64,000 nt of DNA from positions 910,501 through 974,500 of the forward strand of contig NZ_CP023004.1 in NCBI RefSeq assembly GCF_003096195.1, given 5' to 3'. The position numbers and the translations under genes were made by a program. Below are positions 22,862 through 42,887 of the stretch, one piece after another (within the stretch, counting starts at the first letter, position 1; every line of letters begins with the position of its first letter). The stretch comes from Ereboglobus luteus. GTDB taxonomy: Bacteria; Verrucomicrobiota; Verrucomicrobiia; Opitutales; Opitutaceae. The notes under the pieces are model-generated. The model had not been told where the DNA came from. It ran no database searches and worked only from the letters and a program-made list of their open reading frames with translations.

Positions 22862-23071
22862 CGCCACGCGGCTGACCGAAACGTGTAGGAGCAGCGTCAC
22901 ACGCTTCGCACGCATTGGGTTTCCCTCGGCCGCAACAACCGTCGTTCTCAGTCTCGGAGTTTTGGCAGGGCGAACCGTCCCGGTGAGCCGAAACGATTCG
23001 CATATCGTGGCGTTTTCAGTGAGCGCGTCCTGTCCGATCAAACAACACGGGCTGGAAGTCCGTGCTACCAC
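22862..23071. other. Intergenic region with palindromic repeat traces
   Basis: No gene is seen. A GGCAGGGCGAACC...GGTGAGCC segment at 22,964-22,990 and a CACGGGCTGGAAGTCCGTG stem at about 23,047-23,065 look like dispersed repeats. No terminator for the autotransporter gene is evident on the minus strand apart from the bidirectional hairpin at 22,824-22,861. Confidence 0.4.
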
Positions 23072-26000
23072 TTACCAGAGTCTGCGGTAGCCGAGGTTTA
23101 GGGACCAGGGGCGTTCGTAGAACTGGGCCTTCGCATATTCGTAGTCGAAGTAAACTTGGCTGATGTCGTTGATGCGGTAGCTCGTGCCCAAGCCGAACTC
23201 GACTCGCTTGCCGTCGTAGTTGGCTTCAAATGTCTTGCCGTGCGCGCTGATCTCGCCGTCGGAGCTTTCCACGGAGACCGCCGCAAACTTGCCATAGGGC
23301 GCCCAGCGGCTGCCGGGGATTTGTTTTCCGAAGCGCACAAGAGCGCGGTATTGCCAGGTTTTGGAGCTGTCCACGTGCACGTCGATCGCGCGCTGGTCGG
23401 CGGTTGCTTGCGTCGAGTAGTTCGCGCTGTCGAGACTGAGCACCGCCACTTGCACTCCCGGCTCCACCCACCAGCCGTCGGTGCGCTGCAGGCGGCGGCC
23501 AAACTCGGCGCTCAGGCTTTGCGCTCCGGTTGTGTATTTGCCGCGTGTCGTGCGACCATCCACCGCCTTGGCCTCAAATTCATTCGAGTAACGGTCCAGG
23601 CGCGCCACCACGTCGAGGTGCCAGCCGGTTTGTTTGAGCAGCGTGAGGTAGGCGCCCACGGCCACGTTGCGCGTCTTGCCGTTGCCTCCGTTGTCGAAGT
23701 CGCGGTCCACTCCGCCCGTGTCGATGAAGGCGCCGAGCAGGTGCACGCCGGTTTCGGTTTCGAAGATTTTGTCCGCACCACCGGTCATGCCCCAGCCGTA
23801 TTGGCGGAAGGACATGCCGGAGAGGTCGTTCGCCGCGTTGAGGCGGTAGCCGCGCGCGCGAATCCAGAGGTTTCCGGATTTTGGATTGTCGGAGCGGGTG
23901 AGGGTTTCGGCGCGGATGTCGCCCAGGCGCAGGTGGAGGGCGTCGAGGGCGTAGGCCCAGTCGAGCGCGAGTGTCGAGGCGGTGTTGATGATCGCGTCAG
24001 CGGCGTGGCTGAGGTTGCGGTCCGAGAGATACCATTTGTTTGTGTCGGGCGTGTAGACGCTGCCGTCGCCCTGGACCAGTTCGATGGTGGTGAGGTCATA
24101 CTCAAGTTTGCCGCCGGGGTTTGCCATTGCGAAGGTGGCGCTGCCGCTGCCGGTCGTGATCAGTTCGATGGCGAAGTTGATCGCGGCGGGTGGTTCGCTG
24201 ATGGGGTTGATGTAAACGTCGTGGCGGCCCGCGCCGGCGTCGGCGATTGCGAGGTGATTGGCGACGGTGCCGGCGGGGTTGATGCCGGCGGTGATGTCGG
24301 CGAGTTTCGCGTTGAGGATGAAGCGTCCGGTGGTGTCGCCGAGGGTGTCGATTTGCGCGGCGGCGGTCGGGGCGGTGGCGGCGAAGGCGAGGGCGCCGTT
24401 GTTCAGCTCGAGGGCGCGGAAGCGGTAGCCGGTGGTTTCGAGGATGAGCGCGCTGGTCGCGTCGAGCGTGGTGGCGGCGATGGTGTAGCCGGCGGGGTTG
24501 GCGAGGGTGAGCGTGCTGTTGGTGAGCTGGTGAAGGCCTTCGCCGTGGAGTTCGTTTTGCAGCGTGCCGGTGACGTTGAGTTGCTCGAAGGCCGCGCCGT
24601 CGGCGACGGTGATCGCGGCGGTGCCGAGCGCGTCGATCTTGGCGGCGATGAGACGGCCTTCGTCGATGCTCGCGTCGCCGGTGAAGCCGGCGTTCGAGTG
24701 GTTGATCGCCACGATGCCGGTGTTGTCCTTGATGAGGGTGCCGGTGCCAGAAAGGGTGTTTTGCAGCGCGCCGGTGCCGGTTGTGTCAACAATGAGGATG
24801 CCTTCGAGTTCGATCGCGGCGGAGCCGAGCGCGTCGATATCGGTAATGCGCGCGGTGGCTGGGGCATTGATGTTGGTTTGCGCGGTGAAGCCGGTGTTCG
24901 AACTGGTGACGAGCAACGTGCCGGTGGAGAGGGTAAGCGCGCCGGTGCCGGTGAGGAGGCCGTCGATTTGGCCGCCGTTGGCGAGGGTTTGCGTGTTGCC
25001 GTTGAGGTCGTAGGTGGCGGGGATTTCCACGACGAGGAAACTGGTTTGCCCGAGTGCCTCGTTCGCGCCGGCGATGAGCGTGCCGGTGGCGAGGGTGGTC
25101 GTGCCGGTGTAGGTGTTGGTGTTGTTGAGCGTGATCGACCCGGCCGCCTCGACGCGGAGGTTGCCCGAGCCGCTGACCTTGGCGTGCAGTTCGTCGGCTC
25201 CGTTCAGGATTGCGTCGTCGATGTCGCCGGTGAGCAGCGTGGTCTTGCCGGCGAGCAGGTCGAGCGCGGTCAACTCGTAGGAAAGATGGATGCCGGTGTT
25301 GCTCGCAACTGCGGCAAAGTCGTAGGTGCCGCTCGCCACGATGTCGCCGGACTGGGCGATGTCGAGTTGCGTGGCGTCGGTGATTTGGTTGCCAAGTTGG
25401 TCGACGAGTTGCGTGCCGGTGATGAGCGTCTTGCCGCCGGCCGCGAGGGTGGTCGATTCGACGAGGGTGATGGTGTGCGGCTCGTCCTGCTGAAGCAGCG
25501 GGAGTGTGTTGCCGGGGAGGGCGCCGGTGTCGATGACCAGGACGGTGTCGTGGACGGCGAGCGTGCCGGTGCGGATGATGCCGGCCGCCTCCGTGCCGCT
25601 CGCGGCGAGCGTGAAGCCGAGTGTGCCGCTGGTGAGCGTGAGGTTGCCGATTTGCTGCGCGCCGCTGCCGGTGGCGACAAAGGCGTTTTCGTCGATTTGC
25701 AGGGTCGCTTCGGTGAGAACGGCGGTGTTGGTGCCGGAGAGATCGAAGGCGGCGGAGTGCAATTCGAGGACGCCGCGGAAAGGGCTGAAGGGCTGAAAGA
25801 CTGAAGGGCTGAAGGAGAAGGCGTTGTTGTTTGTATCCACTTTCAGGATACCGGTGCCGCTGAGCGCGTTTGTGTAGAGCCAGGCGGTCGCGCTGTCGAT
25901 GTCGAGCAGGCCGTCGATGTGGGTCGCTCCCGCGCCGAGATTGGCGGTCGAGGAGACTTGCGCGGCTCCGGTGATGTGCCAGTCGGTGGAGTTGGTGCCG

Positions 26001-29000
26001 GTTAGGACTGTGTAGGACCCATAAGACCCTTGGGTCACATGGGACGTGCCGGTGCCGGTGATGTTGTTTGAGAAGGTGCCCGTGGCGGCGAGGTCGAGGT
26101 TCGCGTTGTTGATGACGGCACTGGTGCCGACGCCCTGGAGGTTTTCGAGTCGCAGCGTGCCGCCGGTGATTAGCGTCGTGCCGGTGAAGGTGTTGTTGGC
26201 GTGGTCGATCGTGAGCGCGGTCGCGGCGTTGATTTTCTCGAAGACGCCAGAGCCGGAGAGCGCGGCGTTGCCGAGGTTCGCATTGGTGGAGGCGGCGAGG
26301 CGGCTGGTAGCTGAGATCGCGAAGGTGCCGCTGTAGTTTGTGTTGTCGGCGGTGAGCGTGATCGTGGCACTGTTGACGAGGGAAACCCCGCCCTGCCCTG
26401 CCAGCGTCTTGGAGAGGTCGCCGGTCGCTCCGTCCGCGCTGAGTGTCGCGCCGGATGCGATCGCGATGGTGCCGGTGTTGCCGAGGGCTTGAGTGTTGTT
26501 GATGATCGTCGTGCCGGTGACGCCGACGTTGGCGGCGAAGGCGGCGTTGGTGCTTGTGATTGTCGCCAGGCCGCCGAGGCCGAGGCTGCCCGAACCGTGG
26601 AGCGTGCCGTCGATTTGCGCGCCGTTGGCGATTGTCTGCGTGTGGCCGTTGAGGTTGTAGGCGGCGGTGCCGGTGATGAGCAGGTGGGCGGTTTGGCCGA
26701 GCGCATCGTTGGCGGCGGCGATGAGCGTCCCGCTGCTGATCGTGGTTGTGCCGGTGTAGGCGTTCGAGTGGCTGAGGAATATTTGCGTGTCGCGCGCCTG
26801 GATTGTCAGGTTGCCGGTGCCGGTGATTTTGGCGCCGAGGACCGTGTCCGTCGCTCCGGCGTTGTCGAGCACGAGGTTGGTGTTCGTCTTGAGTTCGGTG
26901 AGCAGGTAGTCGACGTAGATGCCGGGGCCCTCGATGTGGTTGCTGTGCGCGCTGCCGGTGACGTGGGCAGAGCCGCTTGAGAACGCGGCGTAGTTGTAGG
27001 TGGCCTCGATGTCGGTGTTGCCGTGCCCGTCGCCGACTATGAGCGTCGTGCCGGTGTTCGAGGGCGCCGCTCCATTGAAGAGCAGGTTCATTTGTTTGCC
27101 GGCCTCGTCGAGCGAGGCCGCCTTGACCAGCTGGATGCTGTTCGTGCCGCTGTCCTGGTCGAGGAAGTTGCCCGTGGTCGGCGCGCCGGCGGGCGTGAGG
27201 CTCGTGTCGAGGTTGAAGCTCACCGAGTCCGCGTTGGCGACGGTGAGCTCGTTGACTTCGAGCACGTGCGCGGTGTCGGGCGACTGGAGGTGCACGTTGA
27301 TCGTGCCGCCGATCAGTTCGAGGCCGTTGATTTTCATCGTGCCCGACACGCTGTTGGTGCCGAGGTTGATGATCGATCCGGCTTGCGTGCGCAGCGTCGC
27401 GTTGGCGAGGGCGGACTCGTTCGCGGTGTTGTGGAAGAGGTTGTAGGTGGTGTTTTCGAGGGCGAGGACGCCTTCGAAAAAGGCTGAAGAACTGAAGGCT
27501 GAAGGGCTGAAGGTGAACGCGGAGCCGGAAAGGTTGACGGCGAGGGTGCCGGTGCCGGTGAGGGTGTTCGAGTAGGCCCACGCGGTGGTGGCGGCAAGGG
27601 AGAGCTCGCCGTCGATGTGCGTGTTGCCCGCGCCGAGGTTGGTGGTCGAGGAGACTTGCGCGGCTCCGGTGATGTTCCAGTCGGTGGAGTTGGTGCCGGT
27701 TAGGACTGTGTAGGACCCATAAGACCCCGAGGACACATGGGACGTGCCGGTGCCGGTGATGTTGTTGGCGAAGGTGCCCGTGGCGGCGAGGTCGAGGATC
27801 GCGTTGTTGATGACAGCACTGGTGCCGACGCCCTGGAGGTTTTCGAGTCGCAGCGTGCCACCGGTGATTAGCGTCGTGCCGGTGAAGGTGGTGTTGGCGT
27901 GGTCGATCGTGAGCGCGGTCGCGGCGTCGATTTTCTCGAAGACGCCAGAGCCGGAGAGCGCGGCATTGCCGAGGTTCGCATTGGTAGAGGCGGCGAGGCG
28001 GCTGGCGGCGGAGATCGCGAAGGTGCCGCTGTAGGCGGTGTTGTCTCCGGCGAGCGTGATGGTGCTCGTGCCGAGAAGTTCGAAGGCGCCGGAGCCGGCA
28101 AGGGTTTTGGTGAAGGCGCCCGTGGCGCTCGCGGTTTGCAGGGCGGCGTTTGCGGCGATGGCGATGGTGCCGGTGGTCGTGCCGAGGGCTTGCGTGCTGG
28201 CGATGATCGTCGTGCCGGTGACGCCGATGTTCGCCGCGAAGTTCGCGTTGGTGCTTGTTATTGTCGCCAGGCCGCCGAGCCCGAGGCTGCCCGAACCGTG
28301 GAGTGTGCCGTCGATTTGCGCGCCGTTGGCGATTGTTTGGGTGTGGCCGTTGAGGTTGTAGGCGGCGGTGGCGGTGACGGCGAGCCATGCGGTGTTGCCG
28401 AGCGCGTTGCTCGTGCCGCTGACGAGTGTGCCGGTGTTCACGAGGGTCGTGCCGGTGTGGGTGTTGGCGGCGTTGTTGAGCGTGATCGCGCTGGTGGCGT
28501 CGATTTGCAGGTTGCCCGCTCCGGTGATCAGCGCGTGCAGTTCCGAGCCGCCGGCGGGCGGCTCGGTGTCGTCGGCGAGCGTGGTGGTTTGGTTGGCGAG
28601 GAGGTCGAGCTGCGTGAGTTCGTAGGCGACTGAAAGGCCGTTGGTGTAGTCGAGCGTTTGCGCGTAGGTTGCCGTGGCGGTCGTGACTGATGCGGTGTTC
28701 TTGATGGCGGCGGTCGTGGTCGTGCCGCCGGCGAGGGTGAGGCTGGTGTTGCTCAGCGCGGTCGCGTCGATGAGCAGCACGCGGTAGCCTTCGTCCTGCT
28801 GGAGGAGCGGCTTGGCGAAGAGCCCCGTGCTTCCGCTGTAAGTCGAGGTGACTGTGACCGTGCCGCTGATGGCGTCGAGCGTGCCGGTGCGGATGATGCC
28901 GTCGGCTCGCGTGCCGGTCGCGTGGGTGAATACGAGCGTGCCGCCGTCGATGGCGAGGTTGCCGATGGCGTGCGTGCCGGTGGCCACGGTGGTTGTGTTG

Positions 29001-32000
29001 TTCGCGCCGAGGATCACGTCGGCGTTGGCGAGGGCGTTATTGTTAAGCGTGAACGCGCTTTTCAGGAACTTGGCAGTTCCTGAAAAAAGGGCTGAAGGAC
29101 TGAAGGACTGAAGGCTGAAAGAGAAGGCGTCGGAGGACGATGCGAGATCGACTTCGAACAGGCCTTCGCCAGTCAGGGTGTTGCTGAATGTCATGCTGCC
29201 GGTGGCGACGCGCAGGGTCGCATCCGTGGAGATGGTCGCGGTGTTGTCGCCAATGGCGTGCTCGTTTGTCATCACCAGCGTGCCTGAGAGGATTTGCGTG
29301 GGGCCGGCGTAGGTGTTCGAGCCACTGAGAACCAGCGTACCCTCCCCTCCCGCCTTCGTCACGCCGTGCGTGCCCGTGATTTGCGTCGCGATCGTCGTGC
29401 TCACCGCCGCCCCGCTCCGATAGTCAAGCGTGTCGATGTTGAGGATTATGTCCGCGTCGCTGCCGCTTGTCGTGAGCGTGCCGCCGGTGAGAAGATAGCC
29501 GTCGGTGCGGAATTGCGCACCGGAAAGTTCGATGGTCGTGCCGGAGTTGACGACGGTGACCGTGCCCGAAACGCCCTTGAAGATTGCGAACTCGCCCTGC
29601 TCCCACTCGCCGTTCACGGCGGCGTCGGTGCCCGTCCACGCGGTGTGCGTGCCCGAGAGCTGCCCGGGCGCATACCACGTGCCGTTGCCTCCGTTCGGCT
29701 CGTCGTTGTTCCACAGGCTCGTATTGTCCCCGTCCCAGATCGCGTAGCCGCCGAGGTCGTAGGCAAGCTTGATCCAATTCGTTTCGCTGGTGACGATGCG
29801 GTATTTGCCCAAGTCGGTCCCGGTAAGCACCAGACCGTCCACCAGTCCGATTGCAAAGTTGCCGTGGCCCCCGCTGAGCGCGCCCGCGTAGTTAATCAAG
29901 TCGTATTCGCCCTTGGCCAGTGTCGCCGTCGTGGTGATGTTCACGCGGCTCATGCCGCTCGCCGTCACATTGCCGCCCACAATCAAGAGGTCGTTCGTGC
30001 CGCTGTGATACATGTGCCCGGGATCGGTGCGCGCCCCGAGCTCCCAGTCGAGCTGCGCGTTGTTTTCGAGCGTCAGGTTGCCGAGGATCGTGAACTGGCC
30101 GGGGCTCGCGCCGGGCGAGAGATGGCCGCCGCCTTGAATGGTGACGTGCCCGCCCGCCGTGCCGGTGCCCGCGAGCGTCGCGCCGGAGGCGACGAGGGTG
30201 TGCGTGCTGGAGACGTAGCCGCGCAAGTCGAGCTTGCCGGCGTTGACGAATGTCGTGCCCGTGTAGGTGTTGTTCGCCCAGAGCGTCAATGCGCCGGCCC
30301 CGGTTTTGGTGAGGGACACGCCCGCGCCCGCCGCGATGCTGTCGGTGGTCGCGGCGATTGAGTTCGTGCCGCCGATTGCCGCACTCGCGTTTGCGCCGAT
30401 GTCGAAGAGCATCGAACCGCTGTTCGTGTAGAGGAAGCCGCCGGAGGCGTTGTTTGCCGCCATGTTGTTGGTTGCAGTGAAGACGCCTCCCGCGGCTAGG
30501 TTGAGCGCGAATCCGGAGCCCGCGTAGATCGCCCCGCCGATGCCGCTCGCCGTGTTGCCGGCAATGGATATGTTTTTCGCGCCACCGCCGATGACGGTGG
30601 TTCCGCTGCTGTAGAACGCGCCGCCGTATTGGGCCGCATTATCCGCAATCGCGAGCGTTTCGGCATCGGGCGCAATCACAATGTTTTTGGAAGTGAAAAC
30701 CGCGCCGCTGTGTGAGCTCGAGGTGTTTCCGGTGATGGAGACGTCGTCGTATTCCCCGGTGATCGAAAAACCGTTGCCCGCATAAATGGCGCCGTAGCTT
30801 CCAAGCGCGCAATTATTGGCGATTTGCAGCGAGCCGCTGGCCGTGGCCGAAATCACCACGCTTCCGTTGTAGGTGTAAATGGCGCTGGCGAAACTTTGGG
30901 CGGTGTTGCTGTTGATTAGTATGCTGCCGTAATCGCCATTTATGACAATGCCGCCGTGGGCAATAATCACACCGCCGGCATTGCTCGCGTAATTGTCAAC
31001 GATTCGAAGCTCGCCCGCCGTCGTGGCGCTGAACCGCACGGTGCCGCGGGATGCGTAAAACGCGCCACCGTTCGCCGAGGTGTTCGAGTTGATGAATATG
31101 CCGCCGTGGGTTCCGGCTATTATGACATCACCTTGTTCCGCGTAAAACGCGCCGCCGTTTTCGCTCGCGACGTTTGAATTGATGAACACGTCACCGTAGC
31201 TTCCGCCTATCATGATGTCGCCCTCCATCGTGTGGAGCGCGCCGCCGTTGACACTCGAGGTGTTGCTGACCAGGGACAGCGTCCCCGTTGCCGCGGGATT
31301 TATCACGATGTCGCCGGAACTCGCGCTGAGCGCGCCGCCGCCGCGCCAACTTGATGCCACGGTCACGTTGTCCGCGATTTCAATGACGCCGTAACTTCCG
31401 CCGATAGTGATATCGCCCTCGCTTGTGTGAATCGCGCTGCCAAAGGTGCTATCAAGCGATGTGTTGCTCGTGATAATCAGCGCGCCGCTCGTGGCGCTGA
31501 TGGCAACCGTGCCCGCGCTCCAGATCGCCCCGCCACTGGAAAACGCGACGTTTCCGCTCATCACGATGCGCTCATAGTCTCCCGTGATACTGACGCCGCC
31601 GGCATAATCACCGGGGGCATTCGTCTCCGTTCCCGAGGCGATGGCACCCCCGACTTCGTGGGCGTAGTTGTTGAGAAACGCCAGCGTTCCCCCGCCGGTC
31701 ATGTTAATGGAAAGATCATTGAAAGTGAATACCGCGCCGCCGGCGCTAAGGAACGAGTGCACCTCGTCGACGGCAAAGGCCGTGTTGCTGGCAAACAAAA
31801 GGCTGGAGCCGGCGGTATCGATTGAGACGGAATCCTCCGCGAAAATCGCGCCGCCGCGATACGCCTGATTGTCCCGGAAAACGATTTCGCTCTGACTGGC
31901 GGTGATGGCGAGGGAGTCCGCCGCATAGATCGCGCCGCCTTGCCCGATTTCGTAGATGAAACCGTTGACGAACGCAACGGTGCCGCTGTTGAAGGAAAGC

Positions 32001-35000: not shown

Positions 35001-38000
35001 TTCCGACCCGAGACATGGTTGTCGAGGAAGGTGATGTTGCCGACGCTTGTGAACGCGCCGTTCTCGCCGACAAAAAGCGCGGGAGACTTGGATGCGGTGA
35101 TGCCGAGCGTGCCGCCGTTGGCAACCTGCACCGTGCCCGACGCGCCCGCGGCAACATGCTGGCCTTGGCTCAGCGTGCCGCTGCCTTCAAGGCGGAGTGT
35201 GGAGCCGAGGGCGTTGGTGTAGAAGATGGTGCCGGAACCGAGGGCGCGCGCGGAGTCGCCTCCCGCAGTGGCGGCGACGAGCGTGCCTTCGTGGATCGTG
35301 GTGCTGCCAGTGTGGGTGTTGACGCCTCCGAGCGTGAGCGTGCCGGTGCCGGTTTTGGTGAGCGCACCGTCACCGGTGATGCTGCCGGAGTAGGTCGTGG
35401 CGGCGGTGTTCAGCGCGATGACGTGACCAGTGAGGTTGTTGCCATCGGCGCCCGCGATGATGTGGCCGGTGCCGGAGAGATTGGTTAGCGTTTGCTTGAT
35501 GTCGCCGGTCGCGAGGGTTGCGTTGACGATGACCGCCGTGCTGCTGGCGATGGCGTTCGCTGCGGTGAAGGCGAGCGTGCCCGCGCTCACGGTGGTCGTG
35601 CCGGTGTGCGCGCTGGCGGCCGCGAGAGTGAGCGCGCCGTCGCCGGTTTTTTCAAGGGAGGCAACGCCGGAACCGCTCTGAGCGATGCCGCTGGTCAGCG
35701 TCGTTTCATTGCCGGAGGCGGCGTCGAGTTTGAGCGTGATGTCCACCGCGTCGGTGCCGTCGAGTTGGGTGTCGAGATTGATGGCGTTGTCGATTGTTTG
35801 CGCGCCGGCGGCGGCGAAGGCGAGCGTCGGGGCGAGCGTGCCGGCAACCGTGAGCGTGCCGGTGCCGAGGGGCCCGGCGATCACGGAGCCCGAGGAAACC
35901 GACGAGCTGGCGGCCGCGGTCAGCGTGCCGTCGAGCAAGGTGATGCCGCCCGAAAAACTGCCGGCGTTACTGGCCAAAACCAACTCACCCGCGCCGCTTT
36001 TGATCATGCCTTGCGTGCCGCTTACGGGCGCGTTGATCGTGAGCGTGCCGCTGCCGACCGTGCTCACGACGAGACGGTTGGACAGGGCAATGCCGGCGTT
36101 GGCGATTGTCACGGAGTTGTTGTTTTGCAGCGTCAGGTTCGCGACCTCATCGGAATCCATTTGCTCGAAGGTGATCGACTGTCCATCGAGCGAATAGTTT
36201 TCGCCGGTGTTGTTTGTGAACATGAGGCCGCCGAGCTTGAGGTTGGCGACATCGATATGCACCGGATCGCCGCCAAGCTGGAGCGTGTTGGAAAAAACGG
36301 CGACCGCGCCCGGGCCGGTCGGCGATATGTTGCCCTTCCAGTTGGCGGTGTTGCCCCAATTGTTGCCGGAGGCGTCGCCCACCCATTCCGCGCTCACGCC
36401 AAGCGGGATGATCTCATAAAATTGCTGGGGGTTTTTCAGGATTTTGGCGCCGGGCGCGTAGGTGATGACTCCGCTGCTGTAAAAACTAATCGCGGCGAGG
36501 CGCGCGTAGTCGAATGCGTTAAGGACGTCGCTGACAAAGCGCACTTGCGTGGCGCCTCCGCCGTAGGTGCTGTTGCCGTTCCAGTTGATGATGTCGAGCG
36601 TGCCGTTCCATGAGCCCAGGTTTTGGAATGTGAGCAACGAGGAGCCGGACGCGCCGTTCATGTTGATGGTGCCCGAACCGGCGAGATTGAAGAGCGTGCC
36701 CGCGAAGGTCTGGCTGCCGCTGACGTTGAACGTGGCGGTGCCGAGTGTGAAGCTGCCCAGGCCCGTGCGCGTGCTGTTCGCGCTGCCAAGGTCGAGCGCG
36801 CCCTCCCGCAAAATGAAGTTGGGCGTCACGATGTTACCGCCTGTCCAGTGCAGCGTGGCCGTGCCGGTCTTGATAATATCGCCGGCGGTGCGAAGGTAGC
36901 CGTAGGCATTGCCGCTGATGGTGGAATTGGTTTCGGTTACGATTTTGGTGTCTATGTTTGCCCCGCTAATCGCGCCGGCGGTGTCGGTGATGTTGATGCT
37001 CGCGGTGTTCACGGCGCTGTTGCCAGTGAGGGCGAGGTTGCCGTGGAGGTTCACGCTGGAGCCGTCGGTCGTGACAAGTTCGAGCAGACGCGCGAAGTTG
37101 CCGCTAGTGAAGGTGACATGCCCCGTGCCGAGGTAATTGTTGCCGGCGTCGGCCTCGCCGAGCGTGATGTCGCCCGCAGCGTTCACGCGCAGGGTGCCTT
37201 GCGTGATCGCCGTGTTGCCAGTGTAGGTGCTGTTGCCGGAATTGATGACAAGCGTGCCCGCGAAGGTTTTGTTGATGCCATAGTCCCCGTTAATCGCAAG
37301 ATTGGCGCCAAACACGGCCGTGCCGGTGACTGCGATGGTTTTGTTATTATTCAGGGTCACGCCGAGACTCGGATCGAGTGTGAGCAGGCCTGCGTTGCCG
37401 TTGAGACCGATGTAGGCACCGGTGAACAAAACGTCGTTTGAAAGTGTGATGGCGTCACCGTAGCTGGCGAGCGTCCCGGCCGAAGCGCCGCCAAAGATGA
37501 GCGTGCCGCTGCCTCCAATGGAGAGATTGTCGCCGACGGAAAGCGTGCCGTTGCTTATCGAGGTGTTGCCGGTGTATTCGTGCGCGCCCTCCAGACGGAT
37601 TGTCCCCTGCTCATTGATTGCAAGTCCACCGGCGCCTGCGAAAGTGTGGCTTGCAGGCACAATCACGGTCACTCCACTTTTGGGATACATTTTGGCAGTC
37701 TGCACCAAGGTGCTCGTGCCGCTGTAATCCAATGTAAAATTGCTGGTGCGCCACAGAATTTCACCACTACTGTTAAACACCAGGTTGTTGGAAATAGTGC
37801 GGTTTCCTCCCAGCGCCCAAAAATCCGTCGTCCCCAAAATGCTGACAGTGCCCGTGCCGAAAGCCGTGTCGCTGCCGACACCAACGCCCGCCCTAATGAT
37901 AACACCGCCTGTGAATGTATTGTCGCCATAGAAGGCTGTCGTGCAGGACGAGTTGCTATTGCCGTCACGGCGCGTGTCCTGCAAATCAAAACCGCCCGGC

Positions 38001-41000
38001 CCTTGGAGGTCGGTCTTTAAAATCAACCGGGCATTACCCGGAAAATAATTATATCCATAAAGAACCCACGTCCCCGATGCGACATAACTCGGCGCGTCAC
38101 TCTGAATGGTCAATGTATAATAATCAGTGTAATTATCCGCGCCGAAATTTAAGTTTCCGGCAATGCGCACGCTGGCGTCCACAGTGTGCGCGACATTGGT
38201 TGTGGCGGAGCGCAGATAATACCATCGCCCCGCCGTGCCATCGCCAATATTCAACGCTTGAAGATTTTTCGACGCATCCCCGCCGTCACCGAATAAAGAG
38301 CCCGTTCCGAACACACTACCATGAGAAGCGACAAGGACATAGCGGGTGTTGGCAGCCGCGCCCCGGCTTGTCTGGGTGCTGCCCAACATCCAAAACCCGC
38401 CGGTATAATCACTGGCACTGGAGCCGGAGTTTTCAACGGTGCCAAATGTCGTGACACCTTGGTTGCCGCCGGCATACGGCGTATTATATATAATCGCTCC
38501 AGTGCCTGTTATATAACCCGTCATAATCAGCCTGTTCGCGCTGGTCGTCTTGATCTCCAAGTCCGAATCAAGCCGCATGTTCGTTCTGATGGTGGCGCTG
38601 TGAACGCCTTGGTTGATTAAAAACGCGCTGGTGCCGGAGGCGCTGTTGTCGAATACTAGCGTGCCGGCGGCGGTGCTATCCAATGTGAAGTATTGTGCTC
38701 CGGCGCTTTCGAGCAGGAGTTTGCCAACGGTGGCGTCCATGTCCACGGTGATGATATTATTGTTCAGCATGCTGTCCAAGTCGCGCACGGCCGCGACACG
38801 GCCGGATGCGTTGGGGACGCCGTTGATCCAGTTGGAACCACTACTCCACAAGCGGTCGGTATCGCCATTGGAACCGTCCGCCGCCCCCGCCCATTCGCCC
38901 AACTGCTGTCCGGAGGGCGCGATAAACCAGAGCGTGCCGCTTTGCACAAATTCGGCGCCCTGCTCGTAACCGGTGAAGGCAATGAGTGAAAGGCGCGAGG
39001 CAAACGCGGCGGTGCCGCTGTTTGTTATATATACATAAGTGTCGTATTCAGTCGGCTTGGCCGCGGTTGACCAGATGCCGCTGTCGTTGGCGAGGCTGAG
39101 CTGATAGGTATTGCCCGTGGTCGCCCATGTGCCGACGCCGTTGAACAGGAGCGATGAATGGTTCGACAGCATGAAGCCCGTGTTACCGGTCACCGACAAC
39201 GCATTGAATGAATTGGTGCCGGTGGTTGTTTGCAACAGGCCTCCGCTCATGGTCAGCGCGGGCTGGTTCACGCCCGCGCGCGGTTTTATATAATTGTCGC
39301 CGTCGATGATAAAGGTGCCGTTGGTGATGGAGAGTGTGGTTATGCCCGCCGTAGAACTCAGGATCGTGGTGCCCACGCCTTGTTTTGTAAGCGTGCCGAT
39401 TCCCGTGAAGCCATTGCTCATGGTGGATGAAATCGTCTGCGTAATGCCCGCGCCGGGATTGGCATAGAGATTCACAAAACCCGTGAGAAATGACTCATTA
39501 ATGGTGAGGTTCCGGTTGGCATATAAATTCAAATAATGCGTGGCCGCCGTGCCGATCGTCCATTCCGTGCCTTCACTAATGGTGGTGTCGACAAGATTGA
39601 ATGTCATTGTGGTTTTGCCTGCCGTGTATAACGCGCCATCAAGAGTCGCCGAATAGAGGGCGTCACCGAGATCGTTGACACTGCCGGTAACGGTGATGCT
39701 GCCCGCATTGAGCGCCATGCTGCCGCTGCCGAGGTAGTTGCTCCCCGGAGCCAGCGTGCCTGTGACGAGGTCGTTGTGCAAATACACGTTCAGGCTGCCC
39801 GCGCCGGTTTTAACGAGTCCCCCGGAAAATACATTACCATCGCTATAAAGCCCCAGACTGCCGGCGATGTTAAGCGTCAGTTTGCCAGCACCCACAAGAT
39901 TTACGCCCGAACGGAAGCTGCTGCCACCGCTCACCGCAATGGTGCGGTCGGCGTCCAGCTCCGTGTTTCCGATGCCGGTAAAGTGAACATTTTGGATGGC
40001 AAAGTTGCCGGCAATGACGAGCGGGTTGTCCAAACTCGCCGACTGACTGCCGGCATAATTCCGCATGACCGCGCCTTGATACAGAGTCAGCGTGCCAGTG
40101 CCCAGCGTCAGGGCCGTGTTGGTGTTGCCCGGGTGGTCAAATGAAAGCGTGCTATGCAAGTCGATTCCACCGTTGAAATTCGGGCGGGCCGTGGCGGCAC
40201 TGATCGACATGCCCGCGCCTTGCACGATTAGCCTGCCGCTGCCACTGATGACTGAGGTGCCAAACCCGATACCGTTTGAGCTGTTTCCGGGCTGCGAATT
40301 CTTGCCCGTGGCAAGAAGGATGAGGTTGTTGTTCAAGACCACGCCCGCGTTTATATTGAGCCCGCCTGTGCCACTGATTGTCGATGGCGCCTTCGAGCCG
40401 CTTTCCATGACGCCACTGTCGAAAACCAGTGCGCCAGTGGTGATGTTAAACGAAATGGAATTATATGCCAAATTTTTGTCGGTTATGAAATGACCGATGG
40501 TCACAGCTTGGTTTTGAAGGTTAATTGCTCCATTTGGTGCAGTGGCAGCGAGTGTCACTTCACTACCGGCGCCGTTGGCAATATCCACCGACCACGCCGC
40601 AAAGTTAAACCAACTGCCACTGCTGTTCAGCGTGGTGCGCAGAAAATCCACCGGCACCAAATTGCCCGAGGCGTCCAGAGTCGCGCCTGGCGCATAACCT
40701 CGAAACCAGACTTTGCTCAAATCCACACCGCCAATGGCTTTGACGATGTTGCCGTTGGACACAACGGTGCCGTCCAGCAAATGCGTGTTCGGGTTGCCTT
40801 TCCAGTTATAGATGGAAAGGTAGTTCGCGCCTTGTGGATTCGTCGTTGGAGTCGCGACGGAGGAGGTGAGTCCGCCGATTGTCAGGGTCGAGGGCGTGCT
40901 CGCGCTCATCCAGATGCCCAGGCGCGCGTCCGTGGCGATGTTGATGGACGAAAAGGTCTGGTCGTAGCCGTTGAGAAGCAGGTTCGTAATGACATTTTGC

Positions 41001-42394
41001 CCGATATTCAGCGCGGAGGAATTGCTCAGTTGATCGGCGCGCCCAAAACTCACCGAGCCGGTTGGCAGCGTCAGCAGGTTTGTGAAGCGGGCATTGGTGC
41101 CGGAAAAAGTGAGCCCGTTCGCCAGATCGAGCGCAGTCTGGTTGAGCGTGACGGCGCCAAGACCGGATTCGATCACAAATTCATCCGCGCGAAACGCGCC
41201 CGTGTCACCCGCTGTAAAAGTGAGCGCATTGGTGCCGGTTTTGCGCACCACACCGAAAGCGCCCAGCATGGCGGTGTTGTTCATCTTCACATTCATCGCA
41301 GTGGCGTTTCGCGACGTGTCGAAAACCAGCGTGGGCGCGTTTTCAAAAAGCGTGCCGCCCGAGCCGTCGGCGTTGTAAACGAAATCCGCGCCCGCGAGTG
41401 TGAGCGTGCCGTGATTCGGGTTTGTGCCGCCGCTGAGCGTGCCGGAGTTGAAATTAAAGCGAAAGGTTGTGCGGGCGTCGTTTTCCGAAATGCGCAAGCC
41501 GCCTCCGTTTTCGAGCAGGATCAATCCCCCGCCAAGCGTGACGTGCTGGCCGGCGTAATTATTCGCCGCGGAATTGATCGTCAGCAACGCGTCGCTGTTG
41601 GCCACCTTGATGTCACCAATGCCAAGATAGTTGGCCCCGGTCGCGGCAACTCCCGCGCCAAGCACGGTGCCCGCATTGGCGCGGTTGCCGATCGTCGTTG
41701 TCACAGCGCCGACAAAAACATCCAAGCCACCGGAAAAGGTATTGTTCGAATTGGAAAGCACCAGCGCGCCGCCGCCGGTCTTGATGAGCTGCGTGCCGGC
41801 GCCGGTGATCGCGCCGCTGATGGTGGTGGTGGCGGGCGCGTGCCCGGCATTGACGTAGAGCGTGTTGCCGTTGCCGTCGATGCGCCCGGAAATCGTCAGC
41901 TTGCTCGCAAAGGCGGGCAATAACGGGTCGGTGCCGGCCTGAATGGTAAAATCGCTGAGCAAGTTGATCACACTGCTGATGGTGATGTAATTGCTGCCTT
42001 GGTAATTAAGGACGGCGTTTTGTCCCCCCGTCGCCTCAAAGCCGAGCGTCGATGACTGGATTATTATCGTGGAAGCCGTGGCATTATTGCCCTCGATGCT
42101 GAGTGTGCCGACGATGACTCCGGGGTTGGCGATGGTGATGGTGTGGTTGCCCGCCGAAAGGTCGTTGCTGATGATGGCGGTCGCGTCGGCGGCGTTTGGC
42201 ACGCCGTTATTCCAATTGGCCGCCGCACCCCAAGCGCCATTGCCGGTGGTCTGCCACGTGGACTGCGCCTCCAAAAATGGTTTAGCCGCACACATGCTCG
42301 CAACAACTGCCAGTAAAAACGCTAACTGGTGAATAAAACGAAAAGACCGTAATTGGAGGTTTTTAATCATCCTTTTGGAAGTGAGTGTGAACAA
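23072..42394 (-). CDS. Giant autotransporter, 6,440 residues, mosaic beta-helix passenger
   Basis: One uninterrupted frame encodes a type V secreted surface protein. Translation can start at a TTG at 42394 with GGAG five bases upstream; an in-frame ATG at 42370 lacks a spaced ribosome site. Residues 1-45 are a signal peptide (LAFLLAVVASMCAA core). The passenger holds many autotransporter-associated strand repeats (LTKTGAGALTLWANNTYTGT type). It has W-rich segment starts near residues 48, 1165, 2000 and 4220, two Pmp-like blocks at about 2440-3110 and 3430-4050, and a tandemly duplicated module at about 4680-5480. The barrel spans about 6170-6440 and ends in LGYRRLW, an aromatic terminus expected for outer-membrane insertion. 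The role, adhesion or glycan binding, is unknown. No adjacent chaperone or protease gene is seen. Confidence 0.95.
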   Translation of the reverse strand: MFTLTSKRMIKNLQLRSFRFIHQLAFLLAVVASMCAAKPFLEAQSTWQTTGNGAWGAAANWNNGVPNAADATAIISNDLSAGNHTITIANPGVIVGTLSIEGNNATASTIIIQSSTLGFEATGGQNAVLNYQGSNYITISSVINLLSDFTIQAGTDPLLPAFASKLTISGRIDGNGNTLYVNAGHAPATTTISGAITGAGTQLIKTGGGALVLSNSNNTFSGGLDVFVGAVTTTIGNRANAGTVLGAGVAATGANYLGIGDIKVANSDALLTINSAANNYAGQHVTLGGGLILLENGGGLRISENDARTTFRFNFNSGTLSGGTNPNHGTLTLAGADFVYNADGSGGTLFENAPTLVFDTSRNATAMNVKMNNTAMLGAFGVVRKTGTNALTFTAGDTGAFRADEFVIESGLGAVTLNQTALDLANGLTFSGTNARFTNLLTLPTGSVSFGRADQLSNSSALNIGQNVITNLLLNGYDQTFSSINIATDARLGIWMSASTPSTLTIGGLTSSVATPTTNPQGANYLSIYNWKGNPNTHLLDGTVVSNGNIVKAIGGVDLSKVWFRGYAPGATLDASGNLVPVDFLRTTLNSSGSWFNFAAWSVDIANGAGSEVTLAATAPNGAINLQNQAVTIGHFITDKNLAYNSISFNITTGALVFDSGVMESGSKAPSTISGTGGLNINAGVVLNNNLILLATGKNSQPGNSSNGIGFGTSVISGSGRLIVQGAGMSISAATARPNFNGGIDLHSTLSFDHPGNTNTALTLGTGTLTLYQGAVMRNYAGSQSASLDNPLVIAGNFAIQNVHFTGIGNTELDADRTIAVSGGSSFRSGVNLVGAGKLTLNIAGSLGLYSDGNVFSGGLVKTGAGSLNVYLHNDLVTGTLAPGSNYLGSGSMALNAGSITVTGSVNDLGDALYSATLDGALYTAGKTTMTFNLVDTTISEGTEWTIGTAATHYLNLYANRNLTINESFLTGFVNLYANPGAGITQTISSTMSNGFTGIGTLTKQGVGTTILSSTAGITTLSITNGTFIIDGDNYIKPRAGVNQPALTMSGGLLQTTTGTNSFNALSVTGNTGFMLSNHSSLLFNGVGTWATTGNTYQLSLANDSGIWSTAAKPTEYDTYVYITNSGTAAFASRLSLIAFTGYEQGAEFVQSGTLWFIAPSGQQLGEWAGAADGSNGDTDRLWSSGSNWINGVPNASGRVAAVRDLDSMLNNNIITVDMDATVGKLLLESAGAQYFTLDSTAAGTLVFDNSASGTSAFLINQGVHSATIRTNMRLDSDLEIKTTSANRLIMTGYITGTGAIIYNTPYAGGNQGVTTFGTVENSGSSASDYTGGFWMLGSTQTSRGAAANTRYVLVASHGSVFGTGSLFGDGGDASKNLQALNIGDGTAGRWYYLRSATTNVAHTVDASVRIAGNLNFGADNYTDYYTLTIQSDAPSYVASGTWVLYGYNYFPGNARLILKTDLQGPGGFDLQDTRRDGNSNSSCTTAFYGDNTFTGGVIIRAGVGVGSDTAFGTGTVSILGTTDFWALGGNRTISNNLVFNSSGEILWRTSNFTLDYSGTSTLVQTAKMYPKSGVTVIVPASHTFAGAGGLAINEQGTIRLEGAHEYTGNTSISNGTLSVGDNLSIGGSGTLIFGGASAGTLASYGDAITLSNDVLFTGAYIGLNGNAGLLTLDPSLGVTLNNNKTIAVTGTAVFGANLAINGDYGINKTFAGTLVINSGNSTYTGNTAITQGTLRVNAAGDITLGEADAGNNYLGTGHVTFTSGNFARLLELVTTDGSSVNLHGNLALTGNSAVNTASINITDTAGAISGANIDTKIVTETNSTISGNAYGYLRTAGDIIKTGTATLHWTGGNIVTPNFILREGALDLGSANSTRTGLGSFTLGTATFNVSGSQTFAGTLFNLAGSGTINMNGASGSSLLTFQNLGSWNGTLDIINWNGNSTYGGGATQVRFVSDVLNAFDYARLAAISFYSSGVITYAPGAKILKNPQQFYEIIPLGVSAEWVGDASGNNWGNTANWKGNISPTGPGAVAVFSNTLQLGGDPVHIDVANLKLGGLMFTNNTGENYSLDGQSITFEQMDSDEVANLTLQNNNSVTIANAGIALSNRLVVSTVGSGTLTINAPVSGTQGMIKSGAGELVLASNAGSFSGGITLLDGTLTAAASSSVSSGSVIAGPLGTGTLTVAGTLAPTLAFAAAGAQTIDNAINLDTQLDGTDAVDITLKLDAASGNETTLTSGIAQSGSGVASLEKTGDGALTLAAASAHTGTTTVSAGTLAFTAANAIASSTAVIVNATLATGDIKQTLTNLSGTGHIIAGADGNNLTGHVIALNTAATTYSGSITGDGALTKTGTGTLTLGGVNTHTGSTTIHEGTLVAATAGGDSARALGSGTIFYTNALGSTLRLEGSGTLSQGQHVAAGASGTVQVANGGTLGITASKSPALFVGENGAFTSVGNITFLDNHVSGRNGAAVYTGDGASLSFNSGTATFASGSVSGVAFGGAIYSEGSLDIASSQSELIFQDNQAHRGSAIYTEGSVSIDTDGSSLLFVSNTARDPASPIHPYTNGGAMRALGGLSINMTGGGTLALLDNYASSFGGAIASGTTAGGGHIGDVSITGDYGRIEMSGNIAFNGSAGAIWSAGSIAISATSAALMVTSNTSAKGNSGGAFHASDGDIIISGSYGIIEIAGNVIADTNWRGGGAFHAFAGDIVINPAATGTLSIAGNSSSANGGAFYTEAGDIVISGSYGEMFITSNVASESGGAFYAEEGNIVIGGTHGGIFIESNTATDGGAFYTLDGSVRFSATASGDLRITDNYADNAGGAIVAYGDVVMGGAYDSILINSNTAQGFASAIYTYGGSVAISATTSGSLEIANNSALGGRSAIYAGEGFSITGDYDVISITGNTASAYSGVVYTTKNIVITPGAVETLVIASNTASSGGAFYSTGTTIIGGGVENISIAGNTVDSRGGAIYGGDIVISPDAAETLVVTSNTAVRGGAFYSVRSTTIGGVENMSVANNTADARGGAFYSGSNFTLTVADGAVFTATNNKAADDASGGFLYTAGGSMLFDIGAGATATIGDANSISAVTDSIAAATDVSLTKTGAGALTLWARNTYTGTTFVSGGVLNITGWTGSTAGVVIGAAAADSGTINVSGYLGSTGTITVGGAGAGALSISGSGFATAAGVYSQNARSTLTLDASARGTGDAFVYASSATVGGTISVSGFTTGTAFSTASAVLAEGKQVLISATSGTIAGVFASATLAGFDGAGLPDYLYGGVYKNGAATQYLAGVNLSWLGGAADGHGDFTIASGTGFNVDVSLANQNNGPYASGWDGKTLTLTTGNSGTLVLSASNSFSGNIYLRNGTLVAAAAGGNTALALGSGTIVYTNPLGSTLRFAGTGTLNQTQRVTTGASGTVRVADGGTLVITATAAPALYIDANGSFTSVGNITFLDSWEANRHGAAVYADAGAALSFNSGTVAFVNGFIYEIGQGGAIYAADSLAITASQSEIVFRDNQAYRGGAIFAEDSVSIDTAGSSLLFASNTAFAVDEVHSFLSAGGAVFTFNDLSINMTGGGTLAFLNNYAHEVGGAIASGTETNAPGDYAGGVSITGDYERIVMSGNVAFSSGGAIWSAGTVAISATSGALIITSNTSLDSTFGSAIHTSEGDITIGGSYGVIEIADNVTVASSWRGGGALSASSGDIVINPAATGTLSLVSNTSSVNGGALHTMEGDIMIGGSYGDVFINSNVASENGGAFYAEQGDVIIAGTHGGIFINSNTSANGGAFYASRGTVRFSATTAGELRIVDNYASNAGGVIIAHGGIVINGDYGSILINSNTAQSFASAIYTYNGSVVISATASGSLQIANNCALGSYGAIYAGNGFSITGEYDDVSITGNTSSSHSGAVFTSKNIVIAPDAETLAIADNAAQYGGAFYSSGTTVIGGGAKNISIAGNTASGIGGAIYAGSGFALNLAAGGVFTATNNMAANNASGGFLYTNSGSMLFDIGANASAAIGGTNSIAATTDSIAAGAGVSLTKTGAGALTLWANNTYTGTTFVNAGKLDLRGYVSSTHTLVASGATLAGTGTAGGHVTIQGGGHLSPGASPGQFTILGNLTLENNAQLDWELGARTDPGHMYHSGTNDLLIVGGNVTASGMSRVNITTTATLAKGEYDLINYAGALSGGHGNFAIGLVDGLVLTGTDLGKYRIVTSETNWIKLAYDLGGYAIWDGDNTSLWNNDEPNGGNGTWYAPGQLSGTHTAWTGTDAAVNGEWEQGEFAIFKGVSGTVTVVNSGTTIELSGAQFRTDGYLLTGGTLTTSGSDADIILNIDTLDYRSGAAVSTTIATQITGTHGVTKAGGEGTLVLSGSNTYAGPTQILSGTLVMTNEHAIGDNTATISTDATLRVATGSMTFSNTLTGEGLFEVDLASSSDAFSFSLQSFSPSALFSGTAKFLKSAFTLNNNALANADVILGANNTTTVATGTHAIGNLAIDGGTLVFTHATGTRADGIIRTGTLDAISGTVTVTSTYSGSTGLFAKPLLQQDEGYRVLLIDATALSNTSLTLAGGTTTTAAIKNTASVTTATATYAQTLDYTNGLSVAYELTQLDLLANQTTTLADDTEPPAGGSELHALITGAGNLQIDATSAITLNNAANTHTGTTLVNTGTLVSGTSNALGNTAWLAVTATAAYNLNGHTQTIANGAQIDGTLHGSGSLGLGGLATITSTNANFAANIGVTGTTIIASTQALGTTTGTIAIAANAALQTASATGAFTKTLAGSGAFELLGTSTITLAGDNTAYSGTFAISAASRLAASTNANLGNAALSGSGVFEKIDAATALTIDHANTTFTGTTLITGGTLRLENLQGVGTSAVINNAILDLAATGTFANNITGTGTSHVSSGSYGSYTVLTGTNSTDWNITGAAQVSSTTNLGAGNTHIDGELSLAATTAWAYSNTLTGTGTLAVNLSGSAFTFSPSAFSSSAFFEGVLALENTTYNLFHNTANESALANATLRTQAGSIINLGTNSVSGTMKINGLELIGGTINVHLQSPDTAHVLEVNELTVANADSVSFNLDTSLTPAGAPTTGNFLDQDSGTNSIQLVKAASLDEAGKQMNLLFNGAAPSNTGTTLIVGDGHGNTDIEATYNYAAFSSGSAHVTGSAHSNHIEGPGIYVDYLLTELKTNTNLVLDNAGATDTVLGAKITGTGNLTIQARDTQIFLSHSNAYTGTTTISSGTLIAAANDALGQTAHLLITGTAAYNLNGHTQTIANGAQIDGTLHGSGSLGLGGLATITSTNAAFAANVGVTGTTIINNTQALGNTGTIAIASGATLSADGATGDLSKTLAGQGGVSLVNSATITLTADNTNYSGTFAISATSRLAASTNANLGNAALSGSGVFEKINAATALTIDHANNTFTGTTLITGGTLRLENLQGVGTSAVINNANLDLAATGTFSNNITGTGTSHVTQGSYGSYTVLTGTNSTDWHITGAAQVSSTANLGAGATHIDGLLDIDSATAWLYTNALSGTGILKVDTNNNAFSFSPSVFQPFSPFRGVLELHSAAFDLSGTNTAVLTEATLQIDENAFVATGSGAQQIGNLTLTSGTLGFTLAASGTEAAGIIRTGTLAVHDTVLVIDTGALPGNTLPLLQQDEPHTITLVESTTLAAGGKTLITGTQLVDQLGNQITDATQLDIAQSGDIVASGTYDFAAVASNTGIHLSYELTALDLLAGKTTLLTGDIDDAILNGADELHAKVSGSGNLRVEAAGSITLNNTNTYTGTTTLATGTLIAGANEALGQTSFLVVEIPATYDLNGNTQTLANGGQIDGLLTGTGALTLSTGTLLVTSSNTGFTAQTNINAPATARITDIDALGSAAIELEGILIVDTTGTGALQNTLSGTGTLIKDNTGIVAINHSNAGFTGDASIDEGRLIAAKIDALGTAAITVADGAAFEQLNVTGTLQNELHGEGLHQLTNSTLTLANPAGYTIAATTLDATSALILETTGYRFRALELNNGALAFAATAPTAAAQIDTLGDTTGRFILNAKLADITAGINPAGTVANHLAIADAGAGRHDVYINPISEPPAAINFAIELITTGSGSATFAMANPGGKLEYDLTTIELVQGDGSVYTPDTNKWYLSDRNLSHAADAIINTASTLALDWAYALDALHLRLGDIRAETLTRSDNPKSGNLWIRARGYRLNAANDLSGMSFRQYGWGMTGGADKIFETETGVHLLGAFIDTGGVDRDFDNGGNGKTRNVAVGAYLTLLKQTGWHLDVVARLDRYSNEFEAKAVDGRTTRGKYTTGAQSLSAEFGRRLQRTDGWWVEPGVQVAVLSLDSANYSTQATADQRAIDVHVDSSKTWQYRALVRFGKQIPGSRWAPYGKFAAVSVESSDGEISAHGKTFEANYDGKRVEFGLGTSYRINDISQVYFDYEYAKAQFYERPWSLNLGYRRLW
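25781..25820. repeat. Octamer tandem tract GCTGAAGG (copy 1)
   Basis: About four to five imperfect 8-bp units of GCTGAAGG lie inside the autotransporter gene and encode FSFSPSVFQPFSPF on the minus strand. An 8-bp unit is not a multiple of three, so gain or loss of a unit would break the frame. Confidence 0.7.
25960..26690. repeat. Autotransporter module duplicate A
   Basis: This stretch of about 730 bp is near-identical to 27,640-28,360 (offset about 1,700 bp). Both encode LAASTNANLGNAALSGSGVFEK and TGTTLITGGTLRLENLQG type sequence. It is an internal in-frame duplication of a beta-helix module. Confidence 0.75.
27481..27513. repeat. Octamer tandem tract GCTGAAGG (copy 2)
   Basis: About four units, one of 7 bp, lie at the homologous place of the second module and encode FSPSAFSSSAFF on the minus strand. 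Confidence 0.65.
27640..28360. repeat. Autotransporter module duplicate B
   Basis: This is the partner of the stretch at 25,960-26,690. Differences are mostly single substitutions, with small in-frame changes in the TQALGNTG against TQALGTTTG segment. Confidence 0.75.
29061..29084. repeat. Perfect 10-bp inverted repeat inside the autotransporter gene
   Basis: TTCAGGAACT and AGTTCCTGAA flank a TGGC loop, directly beside octamer tract 3. On the minus strand it encodes FSGTAKFLK, which replaces FRGVLELHS-like residues of the sister modules. It could be a transcript hairpin or a mutational scar. Confidence 0.6.
29089..29123. repeat. Octamer tandem tract GCTGAAGG (copy 3)
   Basis: About four units (GCTGAAGG, ACTGAAGG, a 7-bp ACTGAAG, GCTGAAAG) encode FSFSLQSFSPSALF on the minus strand at the homologous place of a third module. 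Confidence 0.65.
30240..32290. repeat. Pmp-like block duplicate, C-terminal copy
   Basis: This encodes about 620 residues of short repeats with GGAFY/GGAIY followed by [FI]xxN-type SNT or SNV turns. It aligns along its length with 33,045-35,230 at an offset of about 2.8 kb. Its DNA has diverged more than the smaller module pair. Confidence 0.7.
33045..35230. repeat. Pmp-like block duplicate, N-terminal copy
   Basis: This is the partner of 30,240-32,290, with the same order of motifs (FTSVGNITFLDN, GGAIYSEGSL, GGAFHASDG, GGAFYTEAG, GGAFYAEEG and others). It carries one additional unit near its C-terminal end (the TTIGGVENMSVANNTADARGG type). Confidence 0.7.
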
Positions 42395-42451
42395 TCATGC
42401 TCCACCTTGCGGCTGAGCGAATTATGCAAAAAATGTTACTTATTAATAAAA

Positions 42452-42481
42452 TTATTACAAATAATGGCCATTTTCTTGCAA
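42452..42481 (-). promoter_or_regulatory. Candidate sigma-70 type promoter of the autotransporter gene
   Basis: On the minus strand TTGCAA (42476-42481) and TAATAA (42452-42457) are 18 bp apart and lie about 58 bp before the TTG start, in a strongly AT-rich stretch. The call is by eye only. Confidence 0.35.
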
Positions 42482-42887
42482 TACACTCAACTTTAATTGT
42501 GCACATGCGCTGAACAGCCGAGGGTGTGCATCCGAAATAGCCCCCTAAAACCTGTCAGCTATGAATACATTTTGTTTGCAATGCATCGCACTGATTTATT
42601 TTGCATCACTTTGCAAATAAACAACAAATAAACTTTCCTTATGACGCCCACCGAGAAGGTTTGAATGATCCGCAACCGCACGGTCACAAGCCGACGAACG
42701 TATAAGTTAAAACGAGATAATACTCTGGATCGTCCGCAAGGAATGCACATGGGCGTGACCCGCCAAGGCGCGCTCGCCCCACCCGTGAGGCCGTTTTCCT
42801 CGTCTCACTTCTAATCACGCCCCATCGCCGCATGAATCAACATGATTGCTTGGCAGACCGCGCAACACGCATCAAAACAGCTGCCTC
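42482..42887. other. Intergenic region between autotransporter and rhomboid-like gene
   Basis: The left 200 bp are AT-rich and probably regulatory. At about 42,751-42,793 lies a GGCGCGCTCGCCCCACC element like the one at 17,115-17,142. No gene is seen. Confidence 0.45.

What the first reader, a model, noticed from the sequence alone, without database searches (positions are those of the whole stretch)
23072..42394. A single 6,440-residue mosaic autotransporter
An uninterrupted 19.3-kb frame encodes signal peptide, passenger and barrel, which is exceptionally long for type V secretion. The passenger mixes autotransporter-associated strand repeats with Pmp-like blocks and repeated modules, suggesting growth by domain duplication. 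Such a chain, if exported, could reach far beyond the cell surface.
Basis: partly seen in the sequence, partly recalled or inferred. Interest (0 to 1): 0.75.

Follow-up and report, generated by a model that had tools for sequence, protein, structure and literature searches.

The report
Giant surface autotransporter from a recombining family
The 19-kb gene is real and encodes an ordinary type of self-exporting surface protein made extraordinarily long, and it matters mainly because it is one of 43 such genes in a small gut-bacterium genome whose ends are being copied between loci while their outer parts differ.

Summary
Confirmed: window 23072-42394 is one open frame, but on the MINUS strand; the likely start is the ATG at 42370 (6,432 aa). 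It has a signal peptide, a long beta-helical passenger (PATR and Pmp-type repeats) and an autochaperone, linker helix and 12-strand barrel (AlphaFold pLDDT 93; BrkA, EspP and Vag8 are the closest solved structures). It is a classical type Va autotransporter. It is not exceptional in length: BigE is 10,429 aa, a sister Ereboglobus genome has a 7,032-codon frame, and this genome has four more above 5,400.

What is unusual is the family. The genome (Ereboglobus, Opitutaceae) has 43 barrel-bearing loci, 7.6% of its DNA; other genera of the family have 0-3. The gene shares 5,477 bp with no difference with a paralogue 1.5 Mb away, while their first 1.9 kb are 77% identical. Orthologues in the sister species show the reverse (5' 87-93%, 3' 89%). 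So the stalk and barrel halves evolve in concert, presumably by gene conversion. Two other paralogue groups show the same. The whole 19,971-bp segment is cleanly absent from its site in the sister species, which also shows that the gene's two flanks belong together. Function (surface adhesin or stalk) is inferred.

The parts
23072..42370 (-). giant autotransporter gene, ATG start, 6,432 aa (TTG start at 42394 gives 6,440)
   Evidence: open frame; sister-species orthologue of the 5' part open, dN/dS 0.27-0.40
42395..42501 (-). 5' leader of about 105 bp conserved with the paralogue and sister-species genes (likely promoter and untranslated leader)
   Evidence: 85-94% DNA identity to L061/L085, L086 and L087 up to about -108, none beyond
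42260..42370 (-). signal peptide (MIKNLQLRSFRFIHQLAFLLAVVASMCAAKPFLEAQS)
   Evidence: charged n-region, hydrophobic core, small residues at the likely cut; simple hydropathy test
40625..42370 (-). N-terminal passenger portion orthologous to the PH5-10 gene on C30 (92.7% DNA)
37271..40573 (-). passenger stretch of about 1,100 residues that is only 22-52% identical to the PH5-10 orthologue although both flanks are 77-98%: exchanged or fast-evolving cassette (edges approximate)
   Evidence: identity per 100 codons
33095..35077 (-). Pmp-type (FxxN/GGA) beta-helix block 1
   Evidence: alignment A2, AlphaFold pLDDT 87.8, TIGR01376/PF02415
30275..32110 (-). Pmp-type beta-helix block 2, duplicate of block 1 (67% aa identity)
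25765..28528 (-). tandem pair of 1.1-kb PATR-type modules (25765-26827 and 27463-28528), 81% DNA identity
23139..28615 (-). 5,477-bp tract identical base for base to the unlinked paralogue L061 (stalk, autochaperone and nearly all of the barrel)
24098..24415 (-). pertactin-like / autochaperone region (PF03212)
   Evidence: IcsA and pertactin matches
23897..23971 (-). alpha-helical linker entering the barrel
   Evidence: AlphaFold model, helix 202-226
23075..23875 (-). 12-stranded outer-membrane barrel (PF03797, TIGR01414) ending in a W-terminal beta-signal
22865..42835 (.). 19,971-bp segment precisely absent from the orthologous site in Ereboglobus sp. PH5-10
   Evidence: junction alignment
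22964..22985 (-). copy of a REP-like palindromic repeat (43 copies in the genome)

Best explanation
It is a giant classical (type Va) autotransporter. The signal peptide sends the chain through Sec. The C-terminal barrel is inserted by BamA, possibly helped by a TAM-like protein. [quoted passage not shown] The chain would then stand about 120-140 nm out from the surface, with the N-terminal portion as the distal tip. The most likely role is adhesion or cell-cell contact in an insect gut, with Pmp-type loops on one face. It belongs to a 43-locus family in which the membrane-proximal stalk and barrel are homogenised by gene conversion between unlinked loci, while distal passenger parts are duplicated, exchanged and left to diverge. 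Shown: frame, signal-like N-terminus, barrel and beta-helix by confident model, family size, identical tracts, empty site. Inferred: export, folding direction, length, adhesion, and gene conversion as the copying mechanism.
For: Frame and coding constraint. PF03797 E 1.1e-28, TIGR01414 E 2.7e-46, pertactin, PATR and POMP repeats. AlphaFold of the last 500 residues: pLDDT 93, beta-helix rungs, linker helix, 12 barrel strands. Profile matches to Vag8 (E 9.5e-75), BrkA, EspP, AIDA-I, IcsA and pertactin; Foldseek BrkA 1e-28, TM 0.88 by target length. Pmp block is a beta-helix, pLDDT 87.8, with strands recurring every 29-30 residues. Cysteine-poor. BamA-like Omp85 and a TamB/Omp85 protein in the genome. 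43 loci, 7.6% of the genome. WIN/L061: 5,477 bp identical, 5' 76.6%; orthologues 5' 92.7% and 86.8%, 3' 89.5%. Same pattern in L051/L052/L053 and L056/L057; barrels are either 99% or more identical or 84% or less, nothing between. In PH5-10 two contigs start inside a barrel end 98.75% alike and then enter different flanks.
Against: No expression, export or binding data. The genome's sequencing method is unknown, so the 5.5-kb perfect identity could in principle be an assembler copying one consensus into two places. The paralogue L061 is broken by a frameshift near codon 700, so not every member is functional. Adhesion is assigned by family resemblance only. The Pmp block has no significant fold match in the PDB (best E 7e-3), so its rung shape is not verified by a solved structure.
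Confidence: 0.8

Rival explanations
1. The perfect 3' identity with L061, or the length itself, is an assembly artefact of collapsed or copied repeats.
For: 5,477 bp without one difference between loci 1.5 Mb apart; sister-species contigs break in exactly these tracts; sequencing method not known to me.
Against: Internal repeats are only 77-81% identical. The genes flanking the two ends are direct neighbours in PH5-10, so the ends belong together. Independent data from PH5-10 show the same near-identity (98.75%) of two barrel ends with different flanks. Identity decays gradually at the inner edge. L051/L053 and L056/L057 show the same.
Confidence: 0.12
2. Recent segmental duplication, not conversion: the 3' halves were copied once into new loci together with different 5' ends.
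For: L051 has no signal peptide and shares 8-9 kb with L053, as a partial duplicate would.
Against: L061 is at the same place in both species with orthologous flanks (90% upstream, 96% downstream) and orthologous 5' part, and a WIN-type 3' end is present at that place in PH5-10 too, so its 3' half was overwritten in place.
Confidence: 0.15
3. A decaying, unexpressed giant gene kept only by chance.
For: One close paralogue is frameshifted and 7 of 43 loci lack a recognisable signal peptide.
Against: 6,432 codons without a stop; dN/dS 0.27-0.40 with the sister orthologue; conserved leader and ATG context.
Confidence: 0.05
4. A secreted rather than anchored product: the passenger is cut and released, as in SPATEs or PmpD.
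For: Many type Va passengers are processed (general knowledge); processing was not testable here.
Against: No protease domain was found in the passenger; the very long stalk suits anchored display.
Confidence: 0.25

Closest known systems
Classical (type Va) autotransporters of the BrkA / Vag8 / AIDA-I type
   Same: signal peptide, beta-helical passenger with PATR repeats, pertactin-like autochaperone, linker helix, 12-stranded PF03797 barrel with aromatic C-terminus
   Different: several times longer, in Verrucomicrobiota, with duplicated Pmp-type blocks inside the passenger
BigE (10,429 aa, beta-proteobacterial; Celik 2012, PMC3419190)
   Same: giant type Va protein grown by internal replication of passenger modules
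   Different: BigE is longer and described as an eight-fold replication of one passenger; here different repeat types alternate and modules are shared with paralogues
Chlamydia polymorphic membrane proteins (Pmp; structures in PMC10715098)
   Same: FxxN/GGA rung motifs in a beta-helix, barrel of the same family, multi-gene family of variable surface proteins
   Different: Pmp repeats are only about a fifth of this passenger, the rest is PATR-type; the Pmp middle-region domain was not tested for
Fibrillar adhesin-like proteins of Ereboglobus luteus (survey PMC8286594)
   Same: that survey already lists E. luteus (10 of 2,881 proteins) among proteomes rich in such proteins
   Different: it did not describe autotransporter number, giant size, homogenised 3' ends or gene movement in the sections read; identity of this genome with that strain is likely but not proven
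Gene-converting bacterial surface-protein families (meningococcal TpsA, PMC3848433, title and abstract only; Helicobacter outer-membrane proteins from general knowledge)
   Same: domain exchange and conversion between paralogous surface-protein genes
   Different: here the anchor and stalk end is homogenised across unlinked giant genes and the distal end differs

Membership tests
Type Va (classical) autotransporter | N-terminal Sec-type signal peptide | tested here: met
   sequence and hydropathy only, no SignalP
Type Va (classical) autotransporter | single C-terminal 12-stranded barrel of PF03797/TIGR01414 | tested here: met
Type Va (classical) autotransporter | alpha-helical linker and autochaperone before the barrel | tested here: met
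   helix 202-226 and PF03212; IcsA and pertactin profile matches
Type Va (classical) autotransporter | beta-helical passenger in the same chain | tested here: met
   two modelled portions, about 840 of 6,432 residues; the rest by repeat hits only
Type Va (classical) autotransporter | C-terminal beta-signal with terminal aromatic | tested here: met
   chain ends NLGYRRLW, shared across paralogues
Type Va (classical) autotransporter | Bam machinery in the genome | tested here: met
   BamA-like Omp85, and TamB/Omp85 protein
Type Va (classical) autotransporter | passenger is exposed on the cell surface | not testable with these tools
   needs cells
Chlamydial Pmp family | repeated FxxN and GGA(I,L,V) motifs forming beta-helix rungs | tested here: met
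   two blocks only
Chlamydial Pmp family | Pmp middle region between repeats and barrel | not tested
   no Pmp middle-region family was among the Pfam hits of the barrel-proximal piece, but this was not searched for specifically; therefore not filed as a Pmp
Gene-conversion family (concerted evolution) | paralogues within a genome more alike than orthologues over part of the gene, with the opposite elsewhere | tested here: met
   mechanism itself not observed

The most novel reading that the evidence does not exclude
Ereboglobus carries a recombining surface-fibre system: a shared, actively homogenised anchor-stalk module onto which different distal passenger tips are built and exchanged between dozens of loci, with whole genes moving between chromosomal sites, so that strains of one gut symbiont present different fibre sets on a common base.
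Probability: 0.3. Interest if true: 0.65.

Novelty: new member of a known kind. Interest (0 to 1): 0.42.

Why it matters
The single gene is a very long but recognisable type Va autotransporter. The family is more telling: 43 loci, against a maximum of 19 per species in the 2012 survey (PMC3419190), in an insect-gut lineage of a phylum whose cell surface is little studied. Perfectly shared stalk and barrel halves with divergent tips make a clear, testable case of concerted evolution in giant secreted proteins. They also ask how a barrel and the Bam machinery manage passengers of 6,000 residues.

Tried and rejected
Plus-strand reading: full of stops. Chance open frame in GC-rich DNA: rejected by the domains, constraint and orthologue. 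Tandem-repeat collapse: only tiny low-score tandem arrays and internal repeats of 81% or less. Simple-sequence phase switch in this gene: none found by the scan (only one C9 tract, upstream of L053). Common promoter for all 43 genes: upstream regions share nothing by short BLAST; the 105-bp leader is limited to the close relatives. Mobile element ends at the insertion: no inverted ends or obvious target duplication were seen by eye; a REP-like repeat lies near its left end. Fold matches of the Pmp block: nothing significant in the PDB or viral library. Papers on concerted evolution of autotransporters: none found describing this.

Full report
OBSERVATION. The frame at 23072-42394 is real and unbroken, but on the minus strand; the plus strand is closed by stops. 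The mechanical start is TTG. The ATG at 42370, just after AAAAGG, starts a typical signal peptide and gives 6,432 aa. The gene stands alone. Downstream is a B12-type ribonucleotide reductase gene (plus strand, convergent) with its own terminator, and upstream is a divergent operon of a membrane protein, prmC-like and tgt-like genes (names by eye from the sequence).

DOMAINS AND FOLD. Pfam and NCBIfam give PATR/beta-strand repeats along the passenger, POMP repeats in two blocks, pertactin PF03212, and the barrel PF03797/TIGR01414 at the end. The last 500 residues, modelled with 34 paralogues of the same genome, give pLDDT 93: beta-helix rungs of about 20 residues, a linker helix, and 12 barrel strands. 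Closest solved structures are Vag8, BrkA, EspP and AIDA-I by profile and BrkA by fold. Pmp block 1 (661 residues) is a beta-helix with strands recurring every 29-30 residues, as described for chlamydial Pmps (PMC10715098), with no significant fold match in the PDB. Three cysteines in 6,432 residues fit an exported passenger. If the whole passenger is one helix with rungs of 20-29 residues and 0.48 nm rise, it is about 120-140 nm long; this is inference.

FAMILY. The genome is one 4.17-Mb contig. It has 43 PF03797 loci, total 105,000 codons or 7.6% of the genome, and 36 have signal-like N-termini by a simple test. Three same-genus genomes have 23-45 matches, one with a 7,032-codon frame; other genera of the family have 0-3. 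In the phylum survey only one other genus was rich, with up to 25 first-look candidates per genome and at most 16 scored. Records found by the barrel search are Ereboglobus and another Opitutaceae record. E. luteus was already listed as rich in fibrillar-adhesin-like proteins (PMC8286594). Celik 2012 (PMC3419190) gives 0-19 autotransporters per species and a 10,429-aa maximum, so the length here is not a record, while the number is high.

CONCERTED EVOLUTION. The gene (WIN) and its paralogue L061, 1.5 Mb away, share 5,477 bp without one difference, from window 28615 to 23139, ending 67 bp before the gene's end. Identity falls to 57-99% per 100 bp upstream of this tract, and outside the genes there is none. 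Their first 1.87 kb are 76.6% identical. In Ereboglobus sp. PH5-10 the 5' orthologue of WIN (contig C30) is 92.7% identical and that of L061 (C23) 86.8%, while the 3' block (C36) is 89.5% identical to both. So 5' ends group by locus and 3' ends group by genome. PH5-10 shows the same: contigs C11 and C21 begin inside a barrel end 98.75% alike, then enter different flanks. L061 sits between orthologous flanks in both species, so its 3' half was overwritten in place. Groups L051/L052/L053 and L056/L057 repeat the pattern with identical tracts of 3.5-8.0 kb, and barrels in the genome are either 99% or more or 84% or less identical. Gene conversion is the simplest mechanism; it is inferred.

MOSAICISM. 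Within WIN, a 1.8-kb Pmp module (77%) and a 1.1-kb PATR module (81%) are duplicated. Against its PH5-10 orthologue, codons 1-500 are 86-96% identical per 100 codons, about 600-1,700 only 22-52%, and about 1,700-2,100 again 83-98%: a block of about 1,100 residues has been exchanged or has evolved much faster. The 7,032-codon sister gene and its 5,732-codon orthologue here (L032) are full of 0.6-1.9-kb repeats.

GENE PRESENCE. In PH5-10 the reductase terminator is followed directly by the next operon. The 19,971 bp 22865-42835 are absent with a clean junction. There the WIN 5' orthologue follows an L048-like gene, and the other WIN-type barrel end lies at the site that in this genome follows L053. 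Whether the segment was gained here or lost there is open. This empty site also shows that the two flanks of the giant gene are true neighbours, against a mis-join.

LIMITS. Species identity is inferred from relatives. The sequencing method is unknown. Export, adhesion and length are untested. L061 has a frameshift near codon 700. The two models cover about 840 residues of confident passenger plus the barrel, not the whole chain.

VERDICT. A new, very large member of a known kind, within an unusually large recombining family. Interest 0.42; the tip-exchange reading would deserve 0.65.

Noticed in passing
L108:808-6714 (G000:C1 about 2835807-2841713): One 1,968-aa frame holds TamB (932-1228), POTRA (1572-1641) and Omp85 (1669-1968): an apparent natural TamB-TamA fusion.
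   Followed up: partly
window 22964-22985; 43 copies in the genome: REP-like palindromic repeat CACCGGGACGGTTCGCCCTGCC, often in head-to-head pairs about 41 bp apart; 38 copies in PH5-10, 1 in G001, none of the reversed control.
   Followed up: partly
L099 (PH5-10 contig C21), just after the WIN-type barrel end: An IS200-like Y1 transposase gene (PF01797; protein read by hand from the DNA), possibly the partner of the REP-like repeats, lies directly beside the barrel end.
   Followed up: no
G000:C1:2480301-2500050 (L085/L061): The close paralogue is split into a 740-codon frame and a 5.9k-codon frame by a frameshift between 2482250 and 2482521, near a G7 run; the PH5-10 orthologue is open there.
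   Followed up: partly
G127 and G135 (genus g40, class Verrucomicrobiae): Several autotransporter barrels in one genome have identical scores with different frame lengths (e.g. 3778, 3914, 5180 aa), suggesting homogenised barrels in another genus.
   Followed up: no
G000:C1:1826501-1827258 (L071): An autotransporter barrel is split across two frames, apparently a broken member of the family.
   Followed up: no
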